From contig NZ_BONI01000052.1 in NCBI RefSeq assembly GCF_016862635.1, positions 1 to 64,000 of the forward strand: a stretch of DNA of 64,000 nt. The letters run 5' to 3'. Made by a program: the position numbers and the translations under genes. The notes below the pieces were generated by a model that worked only from the letters and a program-made list of their open reading frames with translations, searched no databases and was not told the origin of the DNA. Position 1 is the stretch's first letter; each line of letters opens with the position of its first letter. The DNA comes from Catellatospora coxensis (GTDB lineage Bacteria > Actinomycetota > Actinomycetes > Mycobacteriales > Micromonosporaceae). Positions 24,113 to 35,834 of this stretch are shown here, piece after piece.

Positions 24113-24599
24113 GACGATGGGTGTCCTACGAACCGACGGCGCCGGCATGTCGGCCTCGGCCGACCTGCCGCGCCCGCGCACCTATGCCGGCGCGTTCCCG
24201 GGTGCGGGGGCGGCCATCCGCTCGCCCCTGTCCGGCGCGGTGCTGGCGACAGGGACGCCGCCGGCTCGGCGGGTGATGCGTACAGCCCCCGTCGCGCCCG
24301 TAGCCGCGGGCTGGCCGGGCACCGCGCTCGCGCAGCGGCGGCTCGGATGTCGCATGTCACTGGTGCCGGGATTCTTGGTGTATGTCCAGCCAGAAGGCGG
24401 TCAGACGCGTGCCCGAGTGGAGGACGGTGGTAGCTTCCGTCGCCCGTCCGCCGTAGGCTGGCCGCGCGTCGATAATGTGGACCCGACTGTCGCGGGTGCG
24501 GTCACAGCACCGCCGGCAGAGACGCCAGCGCGCGCCGGACCGGCCGGCGCAGCCATCCGATCCGATGCGGGCAGGGATGACACGGTGCAGGAATACGGC
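24113..24599. other. parA upstream region
   Basis: Nearly 490 bases between the rsmG hairpin and the chosen parA start. The parA frame is open throughout, but the translated text lacks similarity and coding character. The parAB promoter is probably here. If parA starts further upstream, part of this would be coding. Confidence 0.45.
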
Positions 24600-25871
24600 A
24601 TGAGCCTCCCCCAGGGCTCTTACGGCGTTGTTTCACGTGAAACATCAACCCCGGCGCAGCGAGGCGCCGCCAACCCGGGCTCCGGTATGAGGCCGACCGT
24701 CGCGAACACGTACACGTCGAGCGCGGCAGGGTCATACCCGGCACCCAGTGGTCCGGCGAGCCCCGACGCGACCGGTTTCCGCGCGACGGCGTCGGTGCCG
24801 CCGCCGGGGAGCAGTGTGCCGCCCGCGGAGTTCTCCTCGGCTCCGCACGGCGCCACCGGCTACGTGCCGGTGTCCGCTCCCCCGGCCAACCGGCCGCCCT
24901 CGCCCCGCCCTCAACCCAGTTCTACGCATGTCGCAGGTGAGGATCAGAGTGCGACCGCGTACGGTGCTTCTGACGCGAACACGACAGCGTCCGGTAGTTC
25001 GGAGGACCCACCGTTGGCCATGGAAGCGATGCGCGCCGTACAGATTCTCAACCCGAGCGGTGAGGTGACCATGCCTCGCCCCACCCGGCAGCGCGTCATG
25101 TGCGTCGCCAACCAGAAGGGCGGCGTGGGCAAGACCACCACGACGGTGAACCTTGCAGTGGCCCTGGCCCTGCACGGCAACCGCGTGCTGGTGGTCGACC
25201 TCGACCCGCAGGGCAACGCCTCGACCGGACTCAACGTGCCGCACCACGCGGGCGTGCCGGACGTGTACGACTGTCTGATCGACCAGGTGCCGATGGAGGA
25301 GGTGGCGCAGGCGGTCGAGGGCATCCCGAACCTCTACTGCGTACCGGCCACCATCGACCTCGCCGGCGCCGAGATCGAGCTCGTCTCCGTGGTCGCCCGC
25401 GAGTCGCGGCTGGGCCGCGCGATCCAGGGCTTCCCGATGGAGTTCGACTACGTCTTCATCGACTGCCCGCCGTCGCTCGGCCTGCTGACGGTCAACGCGC
25501 TGTGCGCCGCGCAGGAGGTGCTCATCCCGATCCAGTGCGAGTACTACGCGCTGGAGGGCCTCAACCAGCTGCTGAACAACATCAACCTGGTGAAGGCCCA
25601 CCTCAACCCGAACCTGGACGTGTCCACCATCCTGCTGACCATGTACGACCGCCGTACCCGCCTGGCGGACGCGGTCGAGCAGGACGTGCGCAACCACTTC
25701 GGCGAGAAGGTGCTGACCTCGGTCATCCCCCGCAACGTGCGCGTATCCGAGGCACCGAGCTACGGCCAGTCGGTCATGACTTATGATCCCGGTTCGCGTG
25801 GAGCCACCAGTTACTTCGAGGCCGCGCAGGAGATCGCCGAGCGCGGCGCGAAGATCGGAGTTGCGGCATGA
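24600..25871 (+). CDS. parA: chromosome partitioning ATPase ParA
   Basis: A 423-residue ParA/Soj ATPase. The deviant Walker A is KGGVGKTT (residues 173-180), Walker B is YVFIDCPPSLG, and EYYALEGLNQL and VIPRNVRVSEAPS follow as in chromosomal ParAs. The first 160 residues are a disordered Pro/Ala/Ser-rich extension. The start is uncertain: ATG 24600 has AGGA 8 bases upstream, but the frame is open to 24117. A perfect parS lies at codons 10-15 of this frame. parB follows after 40 bases. Together they move origins apart by a ParB-stimulated ATPase gradient. Confidence 0.93.
   Translation: MSLPQGSYGVVSRETSTPAQRGAANPGSGMRPTVANTYTSSAAGSYPAPSGPASPDATGFRATASVPPPGSSVPPAEFSSAPHGATGYVPVSAPPANRPPSPRPQPSSTHVAGEDQSATAYGASDANTTASGSSEDPPLAMEAMRAVQILNPSGEVTMPRPTRQRVMCVANQKGGVGKTTTTVNLAVALALHGNRVLVVDLDPQGNASTGLNVPHHAGVPDVYDCLIDQVPMEEVAQAVEGIPNLYCVPATIDLAGAEIELVSVVARESRLGRAIQGFPMEFDYVFIDCPPSLGLLTVNALCAAQEVLIPIQCEYYALEGLNQLLNNINLVKAHLNPNLDVSTILLTMYDRRTRLADAVEQDVRNHFGEKVLTSVIPRNVRVSEAPSYGQSVMTYDPGSRGATSYFEAAQEIAERGAKIGVAA
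24629..24644. other. parS: parS site 1 (inside the parA frame)
   Basis: TGTTTCACGTGAAACA, a perfect 16-bp palindrome identical to the parS consensus bound by ParB. It lies near the 5' end of parA, so ParB loading there could also repress or shape parAB expression. Confidence 0.95.
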
Positions 25872-25911: not shown

Positions 25912-26979
25912 ATGACCCCGCCCCCCGTACGTAAGGGAGGCCTCGGCCGGGGTCTCGGCGCGCTGATCCCGACGACTCCGGCGGCACCCGCGGCTCCCGT
26001 GCCGGCGGCACCCGCGCCGGTCCCGGCTTCGGTCCCGGCGCAGGCCACGCCTGTTGAGGTCGCGCCGGTCTCCGCTCCCCCGGCCGCCCCGGTCGCGGTG
26101 GAGACTCCGCAGGCCCCGCAGGCCGTGGAGATGCCTCCCCCGGCGCAGGTGATGGACCTGGCACCCGTGCCCGGCGCACGGTTCGCGGAGATCCCCGTCG
26201 GCTCGATCGTGCCCAACGCGAAGCAGCCCCGGCAGATCTTCGACGACGAAATGCTCGACGAGTTGAAGATCTCCATCCAGGAGGTCGGCTTCCTGCAGCC
26301 GATCGTCGTCCGCGAGCTCGGCCAGGACAAGTACGAACTGGTCATGGGCGAGCGGCGTTGGCGTGCCGCACAGGCCGTCGGCAAGGAGATGATCCCGGCG
26401 ATCGTGCGGGACACCCGCGATGACGCCATGCTGCGCGACGCCCTGCTCGAGAACATCCACAGGGCGCAGCTGAACCCGCTCGAAGAGGCGGCGGCATACC
26501 AGCAGCTGCTGGAGGAGTTCGGCGCCACCCACGACGAGCTGGCCAAGAAGATCGGGCGCAGCCGGCCCCAGATCTCCAACACCATCCGCCTGCTGAACCT
26601 GCCCCCGCAGGTGCAGAAGCGGGTGGCCGCCGGAGTGCTGTCCGCAGGCCACGCGCGGGCGCTGCTGAGCCTCGACCAGGCCGACGCCCAGGACAAGCTG
26701 GCGACGCGCATCGTCGCCGAAGGGCTGTCGGTGCGGGCCACCGAAGAACTGGTGATGCTGGCCAACGCGGAGAGCGATGCGAAGGAGCCCGCTGCCAAGC
26801 GGCGCGCCAAGCCGCACGCCCCGGCGTTGGTCGACCTGGCGGACCGGTTGTCGGACCGGTTCGACACCAAGGTGAAGGTGGACATCGGCCGGAGCAAGGG
26901 CAAGATCACGATAGAGTTCGCGACGGTCGACGACCTGGAGCGGATCGTCGGGATCATCGGCGTGGAGAACCAGGAATAG
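25912..26979 (+). CDS. parB: chromosome partitioning protein ParB
   Basis: A 355-residue CTP-dependent DNA clamp. The N-terminus has a ParA-contacting basic patch ([13 protein letters not shown]), then a Pro/Ala linker (about 20-85). The CTP-binding N-domain includes GERRWRA (146-152) and [15 protein letters not shown] helix-turn-helix that reads parS follows ([26 protein letters not shown]). The C-terminal dimerisation domain carries [29 protein letters not shown]. Seven parS sites in this window are its targets. A clear terminator follows. Confidence 0.97.
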
Positions 26980-26992
26980 ACTAGGTTGACGA

Positions 26993-27025
26993 AGCGGGCC
27001 GTCCGACGGGGCGGCCCGCTTTTTG
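26993..27025 (+). terminator. rho-independent terminator after parB
   Basis: agcgggccg (26993-27001) pairs with cggcccgct (27012-27020), directly followed by a T-tract (27020-27024). It closes the parAB operon. Confidence 0.85.
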
Positions 27026-27453
27026 TGCCTGCCTTCGGCTCAACCATCCGACTGACGCCTGGACGCACCGTGGATGGAGATGCAAATCGGGTTCGGCCAC
27101 GCTGATCCTTGACCGCTCCTCCTGATTCGGCATGCCGGACTGACCCCTGTCGGGGCACGTAGGTCAGCCTGCTGGCCCGGTCGGCTGGCCTGATTCGACC
27201 TCTGGGGTCGGGTCTGCGGGACTGAACCACTCGGCCAGCAATCAGGTCTCCGCATGAAGCCGGACAGAGGCACCGGCAGAGGGTTGGTGGTGCCGGCCTG
27301 GCGGGACGGTCGTGACGGACAGGTCTGCTGGGACGGGTCTGGATGACGACTCTGGTCGGGCGGGCGTGGCGGAAGAGTCTGGTCGGACGAGCGTCGTGGA
27401 CGGTCTGGCGGGCCGGGTCTGGTCGGCCCGACGTGGCTGCACGGTCTGACGGG

Positions 27454-27509
27454 ACAGAGCCGACGAGACAGAGCCGACGGGATGGAGTTGGCGGGATGGA
27501 GTTGGCGGA
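27454..27509. repeat. four tandem 14-bp imperfect repeats
   Basis: Units acagagccgacgag, acagagccgacggg, atggagttggcggg and atggagttggcgga follow one another without gaps. Related GGTCTGGTCGG and GGTCTGACGGG phrases crowd the preceding 150 bases. This minisatellite-like pattern supports non-coding DNA that grows by slippage. Confidence 0.75.
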
Positions 27510-28013
27510 CGAGATGGCGGCGCCTGTGGGAGTGGTCCTGTGGATGGGGTGCACCGCGCTCGTTGCCAGGACCTGTGGATCGAGCCCCGCGGCCGAAGGG
27601 GTGGACCAGTTGGATGGGCTTACGGCAGTGGGGCGCGCAGAAGTCGGGCACTCCGGGTCTGTCGAAGGCCCGGTGCGTGATGGGTTCGCCAGCGGTGGTT
27701 GCGGGTCAGGGTCTGGCGGATTGACTCGACGACGGTCCGGGCCTGCCTGGGCGGTGCGGGCCGAGGAAGCGCGTAGATTCCGGCCGCGCTGGCGAGGGCT
27801 TCGGGACCCGGTATGCCGTGTCGGTGCCTCTTGCGCTCGCAAGGCAGTGGCGTCTGCCATACCCATGTCATCCCGTGCCTGCGGTCCCGGGCGTACGGGT
27901 GTGGTTCAGGTTCACGGTGATCGCCCCGATCCAGACCAGGAGGGCCTGGAATTCGGAGCGAGGACATCGGAGCCGCCCTTGGGCCTGTGCGGTTCGCGGG
28001 TGTCCTTGGCAGC

Positions 28014-28059
28014 AGCGGTTCCTGCTCCACCTCGCCAGCGGCTCCTGCTCCACCTCGCC
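28014..28059. repeat. 23-bp tandem duplication
   Basis: Two adjacent 23-base units (28014-28036 and 28037-28059), beginning agcgg and ending ctccacctcgcc, differ at one base. It is a recent local duplication within the gene desert. Confidence 0.85.
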
Positions 28060-28520
28060 GTCGACGCGGCGGACCGCGGTCAGGCTGGCCGGCCGCGAGC
28101 TCCTGTACGAGCGCCAGGCGGGGAGCGTACGGGTGCGAGGCCGAGCGATTGGGTGTGGATGCGTGGGTGGGTTGCGTGGGCCGGGCCGGGGTGCCGGATT
28201 GCCGGTGCTGGCATAGAGCGGAGCCGGGTCCGCCAGTCGACAGATGCCGGACCAGCGGAACGGCGGACCAGTGGAATGGGCGGGTCGGGGTCCGATTCGG
28301 GGAGGCCCATGGCGGCGGCAAAAGCTCGGTGGATCGGCGCGTCGGCACACTTCGACCGCGGGCTCCGGTTCGTTGGCTAGGCAACCGTCGGTGGCCATAC
28401 GGAGGCCTGTGTCCGGGTCACGGCGTGAAGCGCGAGGGTGGGTCGGGCATCGGATGGCGTAGCCACCTGCAGCGTGTCGTTCAGTGCGCGGTCGGCATCG
28501 GCGTTGAGTCGAGGCGGTGA

Positions 28521-28536
28521 TGTTTCACGTGAAACC
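28521..28536. other. parS: parS site 2
   Basis: TGTTTCACGTGAAACC: the 14-bp core GTTTCACGTGAAAC is intact and one outer base deviates from the perfect palindrome. Confidence 0.93.
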
Positions 28537-29356
28537 AGAAGATCCTCTACTCGTGCGGCGGGCTTGGGGTGCGGGTTCACCCGAGCGCTGCAGGCAGGGT
28601 GGTGAGGTCGTGTTCGACACTCCCCCACCCGTGCTGCGTCGATCCACGGGTCAACTCGGAGCGGGTGGGCACAAGGGTCCTCGCAGGGCGCGGTAAGTAC
28701 AGAGTCGTCGCTGAGTCAGGTTGGCCCCCAGGCTTGTCGTCGGCGGACATGAGTCAAGCCGATCGCGACGTACCGACCCGCTCCCGACTCGCTCGCTCTA
28801 GTCGCACCGTCGGCCGTGTCAGCTAGGGACGATACCTCTGGCGCTTGGCCGGGAACTCGCGGCCGGTGCAAGGCGGGCGGCGAGCCCCGTCGTGTGATCG
28901 TGCTTCATGGGCGCGTGGTGGGTTGCCCTAACACGGGCCACGCCCCAGAGCCTCGTTCTCCGAGGTTCGGTCTCAGCGGCCCGTGTTCCCTCACGGGCTC
29001 TTGTCGGCGCTTTCGATGCGGCTTGCGCTCTTGGGCGTTGGAAGGCAGAACGGGTAGCGCGCGTCGACTCCAACGAAGCAGGCGACGACCGCCAGCCCTT
29101 CGGCGGGTGGTCGGGTGTCAGCCAGTGGCGGTGGCGCCTACTTTCTCCGAGCCTTTGGGAGGTCGTGGACTGCCGGGCTCCTTCACAGGCTTGCCCTTGC
29201 CCATGATGCGATGGGCCGTGGCGAGCGAGTGGAGTGCTCAAGCCAGACAGACTGCGTCCTTCGTGTCGACCCGGTCCTGAAGAACTTGGTGGGACACGAA
29301 GGTTCGGAGTCTGAGCCCTCTCAACCAATGAGGACGGGGTGCGCTCGCGATCTTCT

Positions 29357-29372
29357 GGTTTCACGTGAAACC
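29357..29372. other. parS: parS site 3
   Basis: GGTTTCACGTGAAACC: intact 14-bp core with symmetric G/C outer bases. Confidence 0.92.
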
Positions 29373-30888
29373 TTGCGATCGACGCCGGCGCTCGGTGCCA
29401 TGGTCGGAGCGCATGTTGGTCGAAGCCGGAGTTCCACGCGCGGCGGACAGTCCGAACGGCCATGGCTGGAGCACCCACGCCGGAGGACCGCCTGCCGGAT
29501 GGAGAAGCCGGCGAGAAGCGAGGCGAGGATCGCAGCCTCCATCGGGACCGTGTCTCGGAGCACTGGGCTCTCGTCGTGGGGCTTGGTACTTCCGATCCGT
29601 GGAGAGCGCTTCGGTGTACGGGCGCAGTGCGCCTGCGGGGCAGTTTGCTCTGCGCCAGACGTGACATTCGTGTCGACGCGCAGTGTTCGTTGATGCTTCG
29701 TCGTGAGGCCACGGTCCTGCCGTTCCGCCTGACCCGGTGCCGGCTGAGGGGTTCTGCGGAGTGGTTGTGCAGTGGACGGGCAAGTGCGGGCGCTGCGGGA
29801 AGGCAGGGCGCCGACAGCCATGGCGGTGACCTTCCCACTCGGCTGACAGCCCGTCGACTTCGGCGGTCATGAGGGAACCTGGGACGGCGGAGAGTTGGCG
29901 CGTGCCCACCCGATAGGTGGCGTTGTGCGGATCTGTGGTTGAGCGGGGAGCCGAGCGGGGCTGTCTTGGGTGGCGCCAGTTGGGAAGTCGCCGACGATCG
30001 GAGTTCGGGTCGGCCGCAGGCGACGGTCCGAACGCGCTCGACGCGTTGCGGCCGATGCTGTCGCTCGGTCGGCTGCGGAACTGGCTGCAGTACTAGAGGC
30101 CAGCGGCTTGACCAACTGGCGGCCAGCATCTGCCTGGACGCATCCCGGTGCAATCCGCGCCGACTGTTCGGTGATTTCGTGCGAGGAGTTCGCGCGCCGT
30201 GCCAGCCACGCGGCCCCGCTCCGTGAGGCAGAGGTATAGCCGCTAGCGGTCGGCGGATGGCGGCGGAGTACGCGTTGCAGAGTTTGCCGCAGGCGCAGAA
30301 TCGCGCGTTCCGGGCCGAGGCCCGTCGCGGGCAATTCTCCCCATGGTCTGCGTAACCGAGTGTTGCATCGGCCTAAGCCAAGGGCGTTGCGCCAGTGGCC
30401 CGAGCACTTGTCGGTCGAGTGGTACGCCAACCCGAGTGCGGGTGCGTTCACCGGGCAGCACTCGGCCGATGCAGCCGCGCGGGTCGGTCGTCGGTCTTCA
30501 CTCTGGGCGGGTATCCCCGGGCGACGGCAGGCCGCCGATCGCGACCAACGCTGGAGGGCAGGGTGCGTGCGCACGCGGCTGGGTTGAACTTGAATCTGGG
30601 ACGCTCGCGAGACGGACGATGCCCCCGGCTCTACACGGCATCGTGGCGCGGTTCCCTCGGCGGACGTCGAGGAGGAAGGCCACACGCTCCCCCGGTTGCG
30701 CGCGTCCGAAGGTGGGCGTCGGAGAGAACGGCATTCCGCCCGAGAACTACTCGCTGCGTCCGACGTGTGCGACGGGATCGCCCGCCAGCAACGAGGGTTG
30801 CCCGTGTGTCCGCGAACCGGCTAGTGGCGCACTCGGGCTGGACGGCGACCGCTGGCTCGGTTTGGCGCGACCCTGTGGGCGGGCGCAG

Positions 30889-30904
30889 TGTTTCACGTGA
30901 AACA
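30889..30904. other. parS: parS site 4
   Basis: TGTTTCACGTGAAACA: perfect consensus, and the dyad extends to 18 bp (30888-30905). Confidence 0.95.
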
Positions 30905-31226
30905 CGATGATCGCGTTCGCGGTTGCAGCCGTCTCTGTAGCGAATCGAATCAAGGTTCACCGGCGTGGTCGGCCAGCCCGAAAGGGCGCAGGTGTCTAAC
31001 AAGTGGCTCGCCCGTAGAACAACCGCTGGCCGCCCCAGTTCGTCTCCATCTCTGCCGGCCTGCTGGTCCGCGCCGGGCGGGCAGCACTTTGCGCCTGCGC
31101 GGAACGGCACGCCGCGAAGGGCTTCAGAGCATTGCAGCCCAGGACGGCACGTGCGGCCGTTGTCGCATTCAAGCGGAGTGCTGGCGCACGTGACTGACAA
31201 CTTGGCGAGTGCGCTTCTGCACGAGG

Positions 31227-31252
31227 GCTCGGAACGACAGCTCGGAACGACA
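31227..31252. repeat. 13-bp tandem duplication
   Basis: gctcggaacgaca occurs twice in direct succession (31227-31239, 31240-31252) and a third copy begins (gctcg). Another slippage product in the gene desert. Confidence 0.8.
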
Positions 31253-32915
31253 GCTCGCTAGGACAACTGGTGCCGCGTTGAGGTCGACCGGTGTGGCGCG
31301 CGGATGGCGACCGCGGTCGGAGTCGGAAGATTCGTTGCCATGGCGAAGGCGCGCTTGCTCCTCCACCCGAGACCGAAGCGCCCGCGCGTTCTCGGTTAGT
31401 GCGGTTCTCCCTCCTGGTTGCCGTCGTGCGACGCGCTAGCAAACTCCGCCCGGTTGAGGCGGATAACCGTGCTGGCGCGCCCCGGGCGGCGTATGGCTTG
31501 GGGACACGTTGCACACCTGTCGAAGCCGCTGTGTTTTCGCCGGCACGGCCGCAGCGCGCACATGAGCCAGACGACGTTTCCTGAACTGGCGCGGGGCGCA
31601 GGGGCACTAAGCAGTTCGGTACTGCAGGGATAGTGCGTGCAACTGGGCGATTCGTGGCTCGTGTGGTCGGCGTCCGGCGCATCAGTCCACCTGAACGTCC
31701 TGGCCGACAACTGCGACATCACCGAGTCAGGTCACCCGTCCTCGGGCCACCCGACACTCGACGTCGTGCGGTGGAGTCGTGCATCGCGCGACTGCGGACG
31801 TAGGTCTGTCTGTACGGGTTCCACTGCAGCCATGGCGCAGAACCGACTCGCACCAACATGACCCCTAACTGGAGGACCGCGGCGACCGGCATGACGTCTG
31901 GGAAGGCGGATCGTCATACGGCAGAGCACGCAGTCGAGGCCGGGGGCCAACGGCCGAACCCCGCAACGAAGTGTGGTGTGCCAACCCCGGGCTGGAGGCC
32001 GCCCGCACGAGCCGATCCCGTTTCCCTCCGAGTTGTGGGCCAGGAACTCATCCGCGATTCGCGCGAACCTCCGGAGGCTGGATTCGCCGCTAGTTCTGGT
32101 CGGCGTCGTTGTGTGGGCGGCGACTGGGAATCCCGCGTGCGGCCGACGACAGCGGGCGCGGCGAGCCCTCGGTCCGGACTGGCGATGGGTGCGCCGTGCC
32201 GGCTCGACCGAGCTGTGGCTGCTTGAGCAAACCGATGGGTTCGCACTTGATGGACTGAGGTTCATCGGACTCCGTCGGCCGGGAGTCCGTGGCACCAGCA
32301 GATGACGGCTCGTTCGGCGTGTGGCCCTGTCCACATGCAGCGGCAACTTCATGGGCACCTGATCCGCGCGCGGATTGGGTACTCGACGGGCGATTCTCTT
32401 CCGATCTGCGAAGGTGTCGCGCGATGTTGCGCGGGTGCGCCGTCGTAGCCGTGGACACGCCCCACGACGCGTCGGCGGCCGTGGTCTGGTCAACCGCCTG
32501 TTTGCGGCGGCGTCGGGCGGAAGTTCCTGTCGAGACGGCTACCGAATGTGCTGTCGTCGAGCGAACTGTCGGCCTCGCCGGTGCCGCCTCAGGGCGTTAC
32601 GGCAGAGCGGTTCGGGCAGAGCAGTTCAGGAACGGCGGGTTCGGGCCGGGCGGTTCGGGTCGGCGGGGCGCGACGCCGGCGTCGCCGGAGAGGACCTCAG
32701 CCATCACCTGTTGATACGCCCGCGATGAAACGGAGCTCACTGATTCGGTTGATGGGTCGCGGTCACGCCCGGCAGCGCCATCCGCCTTGTGCCGGTGCGC
32801 GGCTCGTTGTTCCCGGCCCGACGAACGCGTGCTGGACTCAGCGTTCCACGCGTCCATGTGCTTCAGCTGCTCGCGGCTCAGCAGTTCAGCGGCCCCGGCG
32901 TCCAGGGGAAGCCGA

Positions 32916-32939
32916 TGCCCCGATGCCCCGATGCCCCGA
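32916..32939. repeat. three tandem 8-bp repeats
   Basis: gatgcccc is repeated three times exactly, then decays into gaaggcccgaggcccc. Microsatellite-like, in the gene desert. Confidence 0.8.
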
Positions 32940-33597
32940 AGGCCCGAGGCCCCAGGGAGTCTCAGGGCAACTGAGGTGTTCGCAGAGCACATGACCGCGG
33001 GTAGACCCCTGGTAGTCCCGTGTGGCTCGCCGGTCCTGCTACTTCCGTCCCGCGGTTTCTGCGGTTCGGTGGCCGGCCTGGCGGACACTGCGGCCCCGCT
33101 TAGTTCGGCGCGGTCCTGGCGGCGGCGGCCCGGGTCTGCTGGTGCATGCAGCGGGACCAGCCGACGCGCTGTCCTGTGGACCCCGTGCGGACAAGACCGA
33201 GCCGCCGTGGAGTGGAACCCGGGCGGCAGACCTTCCCGATGAGCAGTACCCGTCGTGGCGGCGATCGCCAACCGCCGGCACGGCCGCTCAACGGGGTACA
33301 GGGGAACTCATAGACCGGTGGATGAGGCGGTGCCGCCAGTGCGGGGAGCGCCGCTGAACTCGGCTGCTTGTCGCTGGATTCGACGAGGTCCTCAAATCGA
33401 CCTCGAGGCCGTTGAACGAGCGGGACCCGGAGGTCCACGCGGTTGCAACTGACGCCAGCACCGGTGATCCGGGCCGTACCCGCAAGCACCCCGAGGCACG
33501 GTTGGACACGCTTCGGTTGCGGAGTGACGGGTTGTTCAGCCCAGCACCAGGCACACGGCGAAGGAAGGGATCTGGCGGACCGGTTTTCCCTGCACGC

Positions 33598-33613
33598 GGT
33601 TTCACGTGAAACC
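33598..33613. other. parS: parS site 5
   Basis: GGTTTCACGTGAAACC with intact 14-bp core. Confidence 0.92.
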
Positions 33614-34971
33614 ACGATGCCGGGTCAGCCGACGATAAGCCGCCAGGACCGCCGCCCGGCCACGGTCTGAACCGTTGCCGCCGTCCACGGTGCCCTGGCG
33701 GTCAGCCGACTGTGGGAACAAGCCGGCGACGGATGCCATGTCGCCCTCAGATGGACGCGCCTCAGCCAGCCCTCTACTCGCGCCAGGCCCGGTGAAGATC
33801 GGCTTGGTTCCGTTGCCGAGCCCATCCGACGAAGCGCCACGCCCCCTGCTCCCGCCGGACCCAGGACGTGACGAGCCGTGGAAGCCAGGTCCTGCGAGTG
33901 GATCCCGAGCACGAGATGCGTGGATAACGGCCCGACGATTTGGCCCACCGGCGCAGTGGTTGAAGCGGTGCCATGCAGCCCACGCCGGTGCCCAATCAGT
34001 TGTCAGTTGGTTCAACGAGCCCATGCAGAAGTCGAGGACAGCAGGTGCACCGGCAAGGCCTGCACCACCGCTCCGCAGACTTTGCTGGGCACCGCAACCC
34101 CGAGCCCAGGACGATGGGTCCAGTCACCCCGATCGCGAGCCATCCTTCCCGCGGCGGACCGCGCTGGTGCTGGACCCGGCCTGATGTCGGGCTTGGCGCG
34201 CCGCACTGGCCGCACAGATCTGGGGCGGCAGAACGATATGGAAGCGGAACAGATTTAAAGGGGTAGGCCGATGGCAGGCGAGTAGTCCGACCAGGCACCC
34301 CGCCTGGCTCCGGGCCCGCTCTCGCCATCCTTGCTATGCCAAACGCACCGTTGTCGGACACCTCGGCCACTCGGCGGTGGTATTCACGGTTCGCCGGTGT
34401 CCCGCCTTCGTCATGGGTCGCCAGCGGGCTTGGTCCAGACCGCTTGGGTCTGCCCAGCGGATCGGGCCGAGTGCGCCAGACAGTTCGTGGCCGACGGCTG
34501 GCGCATGGTTCGACCACCCTCGCCGCGTCTCGGCCTGCGGAACGGAAAGCCGGACCTGGCGGTGTACCCGAACCTGAGCCGGATGCCCAGGCCCACGTCC
34601 GGGATCTTGTGACCAGGCGAACCAGATCCGACCTGTCACCGGTCAAGCCGACTGAGCACGACCGGCGATCGTGGCGCACCGGCTGCGGCCTGAGCTTCCG
34701 GGGCGGACAGGCCGGCACCCTTCTCCGGCCTGTTGCTTGAGCGGCAGGGCATCCCCGTCCGGCAGCGTCGGCCAGGCGGCTTGCCCGCTGGGCCAGGTCC
34801 GTAGGGACAGCCGGTGGTCTGTACACAGGTCACCTGGGTTATCCACAACCCGCATGCCCAAGGTCAACGATCTCCACTGCCCCGCCGAAGTGCGAGGAAG
34901 GTCACGTATCCGCTGTCCACAGCCTTGGACTGTCCTCTTTCCACAGCCGGAGCCCGGTTATCCACAGGCCA

Positions 34972-34987
34972 TGTTTCACGTGAAACC
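34972..34987. other. parS: parS site 6
   Basis: TGTTTCACGTGAAACC, starting 5 bases after a perfect DnaA box (34958-34966). Confidence 0.93.
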
Positions 34988-35151
34988 ACCGCCACGAACC
35001 TGTCGAATCCGAGTGCTGCCAACGGGATCAGCACGTGAACAGACCTGCCGTCGCTCTGCGCACTCAGAAGGTGACGGGGGTAACGATGCCAGATTCCACA
35101 GGGAGGTCCCCGCCTATCCACAAAGTTATCCACAGGCACCCTGTGGGCTGT

Positions 35152-35167
35152 GGTTTCACGTGAAACC
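35152..35167. other. parS: parS site 7
   Basis: GGTTTCACGTGAAACC with intact core, starting 17 bases after a perfect DnaA box (35126-35134). Confidence 0.92.
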
Positions 35168-35228
35168 GGCCTTCGGGAATCCACAGCCGGGGGGAGACAG
35201 GACCGCCTGGCTGGGCTAGATTCTGCAG

Positions 35229-35834
35229 GTGGCCGATATCCCCATGCCCCTTCCCGGCTTCACTGCGTGGCCCTCATTCCCATTCGAGGGCGACTTCAAG
35301 ATCAAGCATCTTGACCCGCCGGTAGAGACCGAACCCGCCCGCAAGGGCGAGGACTCGGCCGACTGCACGGCGTGCACCGCACCCGATGACGCGTACATCT
35401 GGGTGAACGAGCGCTGGCGCGTACGCACCATGGACCGGCCCACGGGCCTGCCGATGGTGCTGATGCTGGAGCCTCGGTCCCACCTCGATCTGGGCGATCT
35501 GCCGAACCTGCTCGCCGCCGAACTCGGCGTCATGACGGTGCGGCTTGAGCGGGCCATCCGTTCACTGGACAACGTGGCCCGGGTCCACGTCTACCGGTGG
35601 GGTGACGGGGCCGCGCACCTCCACGTGTGGTTCATGGCTCGCCCGGTCGGGCAGCTGCAGCTGCGTGGCACGTTCCTGCCGCTGTGGGACGACATCCTGC
35701 CGCCGATCCCCGAGGATCAGTGGCGGGAGAGCCTGGCCCACGTCGCGGCGTGGTTGGCAGAGTTCGGCGGCACACCGCTGGCGCAGCCACCGCGCATCGA
35801 CTGGCAGGCGCCGGCGAAACTGACCGACTCCTGA
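35229..35834 (+). CDS. HIT-like domain protein
   Basis: A 201-residue protein. Near the middle HVYRWGDGAAHLHVWFMARP resembles the histidine-triad region of the HIT superfamily (HLHVW in place of HxHxH). Upstream are MVLMLEPRSHLDLGDL and a helix leading into it, the order seen in HIT-type nucleotide hydrolases and transferases. Two Cys (DCTACTA) near residue 45 could bind metal. The third His is Trp, so hydrolase activity is doubtful. The start is GTG 35229 or ATG 35244; neither has a strong ribosome site. It lies directly beside the DnaA-box/parS cluster. Confidence 0.7.
   Translation: MADIPMPLPGFTAWPSFPFEGDFKIKHLDPPVETEPARKGEDSADCTACTAPDDAYIWVNERWRVRTMDRPTGLPMVLMLEPRSHLDLGDLPNLLAAELGVMTVRLERAIRSLDNVARVHVYRWGDGAAHLHVWFMARPVGQLQLRGTFLPLWDDILPPIPEDQWRESLAHVAAWLAEFGGTPLAQPPRIDWQAPAKLTDS

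What the first reader, a model, noticed from the sequence alone, without database searches (positions are those of the whole stretch)
26980..35228. An 8.2-kb gene desert after parB that carries a parS array
Between parB and the HIT-like gene I can support no coding sequence, although this genome elsewhere leaves gaps of only tens to hundreds of bases. Frames on both strands overlap each other, lack family motifs and lack normal third-position bias. Six parS sites lie in it (28521, 29357, 30889, 33598, 34972, 35152), with a seventh in parA. Short tandem repeats suggest DNA maintained for structure and not protein. ParB loading at parS is established; that this stretch is a dedicated centromere kept free of transcription is inference.
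Basis: partly seen in the sequence, partly recalled or inferred. Interest (0 to 1): 0.82.

Follow-up and report, generated by a model that had tools for sequence, protein, structure and literature searches.

The report
Gene-free, fast-changing bacterial centromere region
Next to its chromosome-segregation genes this soil bacterium keeps about 8,000 letters of DNA with no recognisable genes and six identical docking sites for the segregation protein ParB; in related species most of the DNA between the sites has changed while the sites have not, which suggests an enlarged, purpose-built bacterial centromere.

Summary
The 8,249 bp between parB and the HIT-like gene show 0 coding-like bases (44,438 of 55,751 elsewhere in the window). 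They carry six perfect parS; a seventh lies in parA. The genome has eight.

The desert is a genus trait (Catellatospora): 6.9-8.4 kb with six parS in 9 of 9 linked genomes. Between two close species it is 72.6% identical with 125 indels (last 450 bp left out), against 91.2% at fourfold sites and 95.9% in other non-coding-like DNA. Outside the last 450 bp, the only 12-mers shared by six genomes lie in parS and its edges. Ten deserts hold 60 parS, all perfect, with no further copy up to 3 mismatches. A hairpin follows parB in 9 of 9. The last ~400 bp, with two parS and three DnaA boxes, is conserved.

Best reading: an enlarged ParABS centromere in which the parS sites, and perhaps freedom from transcription, matter. 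That the spacer itself is selected is inference: total length is not significantly constrained (P = 0.16), and there were no RNA-seq or ChIP-seq data.

The parts
24630..24643 (.). parS 0, perfect, inside the open frame upstream of the ParA ATPase domain (reads ...VSRET...)
24117..25871 (+). parA: ATPase domain from about codon 326; the true start is uncertain (long N-terminal open frame)
   Evidence: (NF041546, 112.7 bits, below its cut-off of 180)
25912..26979 (+). parB
   Evidence: TIGR00180, 198.6 bits, cut-off 58.45
26991..27022 (+). terminator-like hairpin with T-run directly after parB; a hairpin is present at this place in 9 of 9 genomes (window included); in the 7 aligned, two pairs change on both sides
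   Evidence: not listed by the pattern scan
26980..35228 (.). gene-free, fast-diverging spacer carrying six parS
27902..28171 (-). decayed gene fragment, 71.5% identical to part of a coding-like ORF on contig C59 of the same genome; holds a 23-bp direct duplication
28522..28535 (.). parS 1; GATC five bases downstream
29358..29371 (.). parS 2; GATC five bases away on both sides
30890..30903 (.). parS 3; the longest conserved core (TGTTTCACGTGAAACACGATGATCG, 30889-30913, in 6 of 6 subclade genomes); GATC five bases downstream
33599..33612 (.). parS 4
34973..34986 (.). parS 5
35153..35166 (.). parS 6; 179-180 bp after parS 5 in 10 of 10 genomes, its first base 75-77 bp before the HIT-like gene
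34821..35228 (.). conserved block upstream of the HIT-like gene: parS 5 and 6 plus TTATCCACA at 34839, 34958 and 35126
35229..35834 (+).

Best explanation
The stretch is the chromosome's main centromere: an enlarged intergenic ParABS loading zone. Shown: six perfect parS sites sit in DNA that is non-coding by every test made, with one more in parA and one on another contig; the sites, their order and their number are conserved across the genus while the DNA between them diverges faster than synonymous sites; a terminator-like hairpin follows parB, and the next gene is read outward. Inferred: ParB dimers load at each parS, close with CTP and slide over the neighbouring DNA; several loaders, mostly 0.3-2.9 kb apart, fill the 7-8 kb with clamps, and the absence of transcribing polymerase keeps them from being stripped or stalled. 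ParA and SMC then act on this one ParB-dense domain. In this view the spacer's letters do not matter. What matters is that it holds loading sites, is not transcribed and does not encode anything.
For: Six exact parS in all ten deserts examined; 60 of 60 perfect, with no further copy up to 3 mismatches (at 4 mismatches there are 10 more, as many as in shuffled DNA). 6 of this genome's 8 exact parS are here. Coding-like bases 0 of 8,249; of ten Catellatospora deserts eight give 0 and two give 285 and 378. Indels are mostly 1-2 bases (94 of 126). Outside the last 450 bp, the only 12-mers shared by six genomes lie in parS and its edges. The window and L102 deserts are hardly more alike than shuffled DNA (0.474 against 0.456). 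Hairpin after parB. Across 47 family loci the gap length rises with the number of exact parS (Spearman 0.88; not corrected for relatedness, and 17 of the 47 were picked mainly for large gaps). 10 of the 11 other genomes with a gap over 5 kb have at most 264 coding-like bases in it, by a codon model trained on this window. Literature: ParB slides from parS, is stopped by a firmly bound roadblock on stretched DNA and can bypass it on slack DNA (PMC9242446, passages read).
Against: Many related genera do with 0.2-3 kb gaps and 1-5 parS. ParB can pass roadblocks by recruitment in trans, and ChIP-seq elsewhere shows no strong change of ParB occupancy near genes (PMC9242446). Total length is not significantly constrained (P = 0.16). 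One large-gap genome (locus L114) does hold coding-like DNA among its 12 parS: 2,970 of 5,805 bases. The promoter scan is uninformative (0 found, 0.5 expected), and the terminator scan found no excess (3 against 4.2 expected) and did not list the parB hairpin. No expression or ChIP data.
Confidence: 0.6

Rival explanations
1. The spacer is passive. ParB and SMC occupancy, or selection against transcription next to parS, makes the site useless for genes; neutral DNA accumulates there by slippage and capture of gene fragments, and only the six parS are selected. Nothing requires 8 kb.
For: Divergence to near saturation between the sites; short tandem arrays that come and go; a decayed gene fragment at 27902-28171; no significant constraint on total length; large spread of gap size across the family.
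Against: All nine linked genomes of the genus keep 6.9-8.4 kb although deletion is generally held to remove useless bacterial DNA (recalled); the parS number is fixed at six in the genus and rises with gap length across the family.
Confidence: 0.3
2. A graveyard of pseudogenes or a decayed mobile element inserted after parB.
For: One gene fragment and two weaker short similarities to other places in the genome.
Against: No Pfam match in nine desert ORFs and one negligible PHROGs match in ten; no plasmid or phage similarity over 27020-34800; a gap of like size and parS content at the same place in the whole genus; the closest pairs by HIT gene also have the most alike deserts (L102/L103, L109/L110); no decayed parS copies.
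Confidence: 0.05
3. Unrecognised fast-evolving small proteins or a long non-coding RNA.
For: The codon scan can miss odd proteins: it misses the parA N-terminal frame.
Against: Indels are not in threes (16 of 126), no shared words but parS outside the last 450 bp, no Rfam match, low GC3 in every ORF.
Confidence: 0.05

Closest known systems
oriC-proximal parS cluster of Corynebacterium glutamicum (PMC7083940; passages read)
   Same: Actinobacterial ParABS; a cluster of ten parS near oriC, nine of them in intergenic regions, with ParB and SMC recruitment
   Different: There the sites are spread over 35 kb, one within a coding sequence; here six sit in one gene-free 8.2-kb gap
Streptomyces coelicolor parS cluster (Jakimowicz et al. 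2002; title seen in reference lists only; details recalled)
   Same: Filamentous actinobacterium; many parS around oriC and parAB
   Different: As recalled, about 20 sites over hundreds of kb in ordinary intergenic gaps; no gene-free block recalled
parB-HIT intergenic region of Micromonospora, Paractinoplanes and other Micromonosporaceae
   Same: Same position, parS inside, DnaA boxes next to the HIT-like gene in most
   Different: Mostly 0.2-3 kb with 1-5 parS; some genera reach 4-8 kb, whether independently or by common descent was not tested
D78 DnaA-box cluster of S. coelicolor (recalled; one paper search listed none on it)
   Same: DnaA boxes outside oriC near the origin
   Different: Here the boxes are interleaved with two parS in one conserved 400-bp block; binding not tested
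Regional centromeres of eukaryotes (analogy only, recalled)
   Same: Fast-changing, gene-poor DNA that keeps its segregation role
   Different: Here the positions are set by a fixed DNA word, parS, and no histone is involved

Membership tests
Chromosomal ParABS segregation system | ParB/Spo0J family protein beside the sites | tested here: met
   TIGR00180 198.6 bits, above cut-off 58.45
Chromosomal ParABS segregation system | ParA Walker ATPase gene upstream of parB | tested here: met
   ParA-type domain from codon 326 (NF041546 112.7 bits, E 1.6e-32, but below that model's curated cut-off of 180); KGGVGKT motif visible in the translation
Chromosomal ParABS segregation system | parS palindromes near oriC, more than chance | tested here: met
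   7 perfect in 64 kb, 0.04 expected at up to 2 mismatches; nearness to oriC inferred from gene order
Chromosomal ParABS segregation system | ParB binds and spreads from these sites | not testable with these tools
   needs ChIP-seq
Dedicated gene-free centromere | No coding sequence between the sites | tested here: met
Dedicated gene-free centromere | Sites conserved while the surroundings are not | tested here: met
Dedicated gene-free centromere | Insulated from transcription | tested here: inconclusive
   Hairpin after parB in 9 of 9 and HIT-like gene directed outward; pattern scans uninformative; no expression data
Dedicated gene-free centromere | Size itself under selection | tested here: inconclusive
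   6.9-8.4 kb in 9 of 9, but permutation P = 0.16
Decayed mobile element | Element genes or database relatives | tested here: not met
   one decayed gene fragment only
DnaA titration site (D78/datA type) | Cluster of DnaA boxes outside oriC | tested here: met
   TTATCCACA at 34839, 34958, 35126, three of the seven TTWTCCACA in the window; 42 of 47 family loci have at least one TTRTCCACA in the last 500 bp of the gap, or in the whole gap where it is shorter
DnaA titration site (D78/datA type) | High-affinity DnaA binding that lowers initiation | not testable with these tools
   needs binding and deletion experiments

The most novel reading that the evidence does not exclude
A bacterial 'regional centromere': a gene-free, transcription-insulated domain defined by number and spacing of ParB loaders and not by spacer sequence, whose spacer diverges faster than any other DNA compared here because ParB/SMC occupancy so near the origin changes repair or replication there. 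Its inner parS sites carry a second signal strongly enriched in this genus, GATC at a fixed five bases from parS, which a Dam-like methylase could use to mark newly replicated centromeres.
Probability: 0.15. Interest if true: 0.85.

Novelty: new variant of a known kind. Interest (0 to 1): 0.62.

Why it matters
How ParB spreads over many kilobases on DNA crowded with genes is a puzzle (raised in PMC9242446, passages). Here evolution has made a natural test: one genus with a 7-8-kb gene-free array, other genera of the family with versions as short as 0.2-0.3 kb. Shortening the spacer, or putting a transcribed gene in it, asks directly whether freedom from transcription helps a bacterial centromere. 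In the closest pair the spacer's divergence is about 3.6 times that at fourfold sites and 8 times that of other non-coding-like DNA (Jukes-Cantor); this is a measurable bacterial parallel to fast-evolving eukaryotic centromeres. In the listings shown by eight paper searches of the open-licence library I saw no description of such a region; subscription papers are mostly not held.

Tried and rejected
Rejected: hidden genes (low GC3, indels not in threes, no families); mobile element; assembly artefact (present in assemblies of 1, 2 and 4 contigs: G007, G008, G003); recent import of foreign DNA (no sharp breaks inside the desert in the closest pair, and likeness of deserts follows that of the genes); tandem repeats as the structural principle (like arrays only among close relatives).

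Led nowhere: sigma-70 promoter scan (0 found, 0.5 expected) and terminator scan (3 found, 4.2 expected; it did not list the parB hairpin); substitution spectrum (only 420 usable sites); length permutation (P = 0.16); a 2007 survey of parS sites was not held.

Against the GATC idea: single cases of GATC at +5 occur in other actinobacteria (2 of 147 flanks) and at 6 of 107 sites in 17 unnamed relatives; GATC is somewhat over-represented in all ten deserts (3.6-6.2 per kb, 2.8-3.2 expected); G005 has no D12 methylase match, yet its desert (L109) has GATC at 2 of 4 inner sites.

The hairpin covariation used 7 of 9 sequences; the leaders of L109 and L110 were left out. In one search, 1 of 17 control stretches was dropped because its flanks were not both found; that script used a slightly looser coding threshold. 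L108 (G002) and G009 are split over contigs: L108 entered the parS and coding counts, G009 did not.
Full report
WHERE IT IS. The window lies in a Micromonosporaceae genome (G000, contig 52, 9.35 Mb in 222 contigs). The nearest named parB relatives listed are Catellatospora paridis (93%) and C. methionotrophica (91%), so I call the genus Catellatospora. On the right come yidC, jag (below its cut-off), rsmG/gidB, parA and parB, then the desert and the HIT-like gene at 35229. That this is the origin region follows from this gene order (recalled knowledge); dnaA and dnaN were not tested by a call.

THE OBSERVATION. Seven perfect parS lie in the window, six of them in the desert. The genome has eight in all; the eighth is on contig 15. 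No ORF in the desert looks like a gene: of 41 ORFs of 100 aa or more wholly inside, the highest GC3 is 0.77, whereas the 41 gene-like ORFs outside have 0.87 to 0.99 (their filter asks for more than 0.85). A codon-usage scan gives 0 of 8,249 coding-like bases, against 44,438 of 55,751 elsewhere. The scan is not complete: it misses the N-terminal parA frame. Pfam found nothing in nine desert ORFs and the HIT-like protein, PHROGs one negligible match in ten desert ORFs, Rfam nothing in the desert, and DNA searches of plasmids and phages nothing for 27020-34800.

A GENUS TRAIT. In the nine genomes (window included) where parB and the HIT-like gene are on one contig, the gap is 6.9 to 8.4 kb. Each holds exactly six parS, the last two 179-180 bp apart and 75-77 bp before the HIT-like gene. 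A tenth genome, cut by a contig end, also shows six; an eleventh (G009) is split and was not assessed. Counting up to 3 mismatches, the ten deserts hold 60 sites, all perfect; at 4 mismatches there are 70, the surplus being that of shuffled DNA (5-14). The other spacings vary from 257 to 2,909 bp.

SITES KEPT, SPACER LOST. L102 (C. paridis) and L103 are close: fourfold sites of six genes are 91.2% identical (789 of 865). Their desert without the last 450 bp is 72.6% identical with 125 indels. In the whole desert 94 of 126 indels are 1-2 bases and 16 of 126 are multiples of three. Non-coding-like stretches elsewhere (16 of 17 usable, 7,195 aligned bases within about 80 kb) are 95.9% identical with 1.8 indels per kb. 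In Jukes-Cantor terms this is 0.341 against 0.094 and 0.042. Fourfold sites may be held back by codon bias, and the other stretches include regulatory DNA and missed coding, so this does not prove a raised mutation rate. Between the window and L102 the desert is hardly more alike than shuffled DNA (0.474 against 0.456), and between the window and L104 likewise (0.449 against 0.442). Leaving out the last 450 bp, the only 12-mers shared by six genomes lie in the four inner parS and their edges. The last 450 bp are conserved (92.7% between L102 and L103, 82.2% between the window and L102).

EDGES. A GC-rich hairpin with a more or less T-rich tail follows parB in 9 of 9 deserts (-29 to -36 kcal/mol for the first 60 bases), in most starting about 12-18 bases after the stop codon. 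In the seven sequences aligned (L109 and L110 left out), 95.7% of cells pair and two pairs change on both sides; 2 of 500 shuffles reach the covariation score. The pattern scan did not list this hairpin. At the other end is a block with parS 5 and 6 and three TTATCCACA, upstream of a gene read outward. In 42 of 47 family loci the last 500 bp of the gap, or the whole gap if shorter, hold at least one TTRTCCACA.

THE FAMILY. In 132 of 148 placed genomes parB and the HIT-like gene are linked; the median gap (match end to match start) is 1,260 bp, and 20 exceed 5 kb: nine Catellatospora and eleven others. Of those eleven, ten have at most 264 coding-like bases in the gap; one (L114) has 2,970 of 5,805 (codon model trained on this window). 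Gap length and number of exact parS rise together over 47 loci (Spearman 0.88), without correction for relatedness, and with 17 loci chosen mainly for large gaps. Gap sequence in other genera also diverges faster than fourfold sites between the closest pairs at hand (for example 0.464 with fourfold identity 0.762, and 0.636 with 0.830).

A SECOND SIGNAL. GATC stands exactly five bases from parS at 28 of 40 inner sites; it is the most frequent of all tetramer-offset pairs (14 of 20 in five divergent genomes). It is absent at that offset in 314 flanks of other named Micromonosporaceae loci, but occurs at 6 of 107 sites in 17 unnamed relatives and in 2 of 147 flanks of other actinobacteria. I noticed it by eye before testing it, and GATC is somewhat over-represented in the deserts as a whole. 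A D12-type adenine methylase family match occurs in 10 of 11 genus genomes, weak in two; its target is unknown, and the genome without it (G005) still has GATC at 2 of 4 inner sites.

MECHANISM. The anatomy fits an enlarged ParB loading zone. From papers: ParB slides from parS, is blocked by a firmly bound roadblock on stretched DNA and can bypass it on slack DNA; ChIP-seq in other species shows no strong change near genes (PMC9242446, passages). In C. glutamicum nine of ten parS are intergenic, within 35 kb (PMC7083940, passages). Here six sites are packed into one gene-free gap. That the gap is kept free of transcription, and that this helps ParB, is inference. The main rival is that the spacer is passive.

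VERDICT. The centromere reading is well supported for the parS sites and open for the spacer.

Noticed in passing
window 34821-35228: DnaA boxes and two parS interleaved in one conserved block upstream of the HIT-like gene; boxes there are common in the family: a possible link between initiation control and segregation.
   Followed up: partly
parS 1-4 of ten Catellatospora deserts: GATC exactly five bases from parS at 28 of 40 inner sites, 0 of 314 flanks in other named Micromonosporaceae loci, 6 of 107 sites in unnamed relatives.
   Followed up: partly
G000:C17:33421-34011: A D12-type adenine methylase match, found in 10 of 11 genus genomes (weak in two); could relate to the GATC beside parS.
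   Followed up: partly
deserts L102-L106, L109, L110: Long 7- and 8-bp tandem arrays (up to 68 copies, several perfect), some ending right at parS; nearly absent in the window.
   Followed up: partly
window 27902-28171: Decayed fragment of a coding-like ORF on contig C59 of the same genome; the ORF's protein has no NCBIfam match.
   Followed up: partly
window 35229-35834: HIT-like gene: matched in 149 of 150 family genomes, yet no Pfam or NCBIfam match.
   Followed up: no
window 24117-25091: Long open frame before the ParA ATPase domain in the window and 9 of 9 relatives, with parS read as VSRET inside it in the window.
   Followed up: partly
G000:C15:121685: The eighth parS, on another contig, after a T-rich stretch, with GATC at +2.
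   Followed up: no
G035: A family member with 47 exact parS in its genome, 12 of them in a 5.8-kb parB-HIT gap that does contain coding-like DNA.
   Followed up: no
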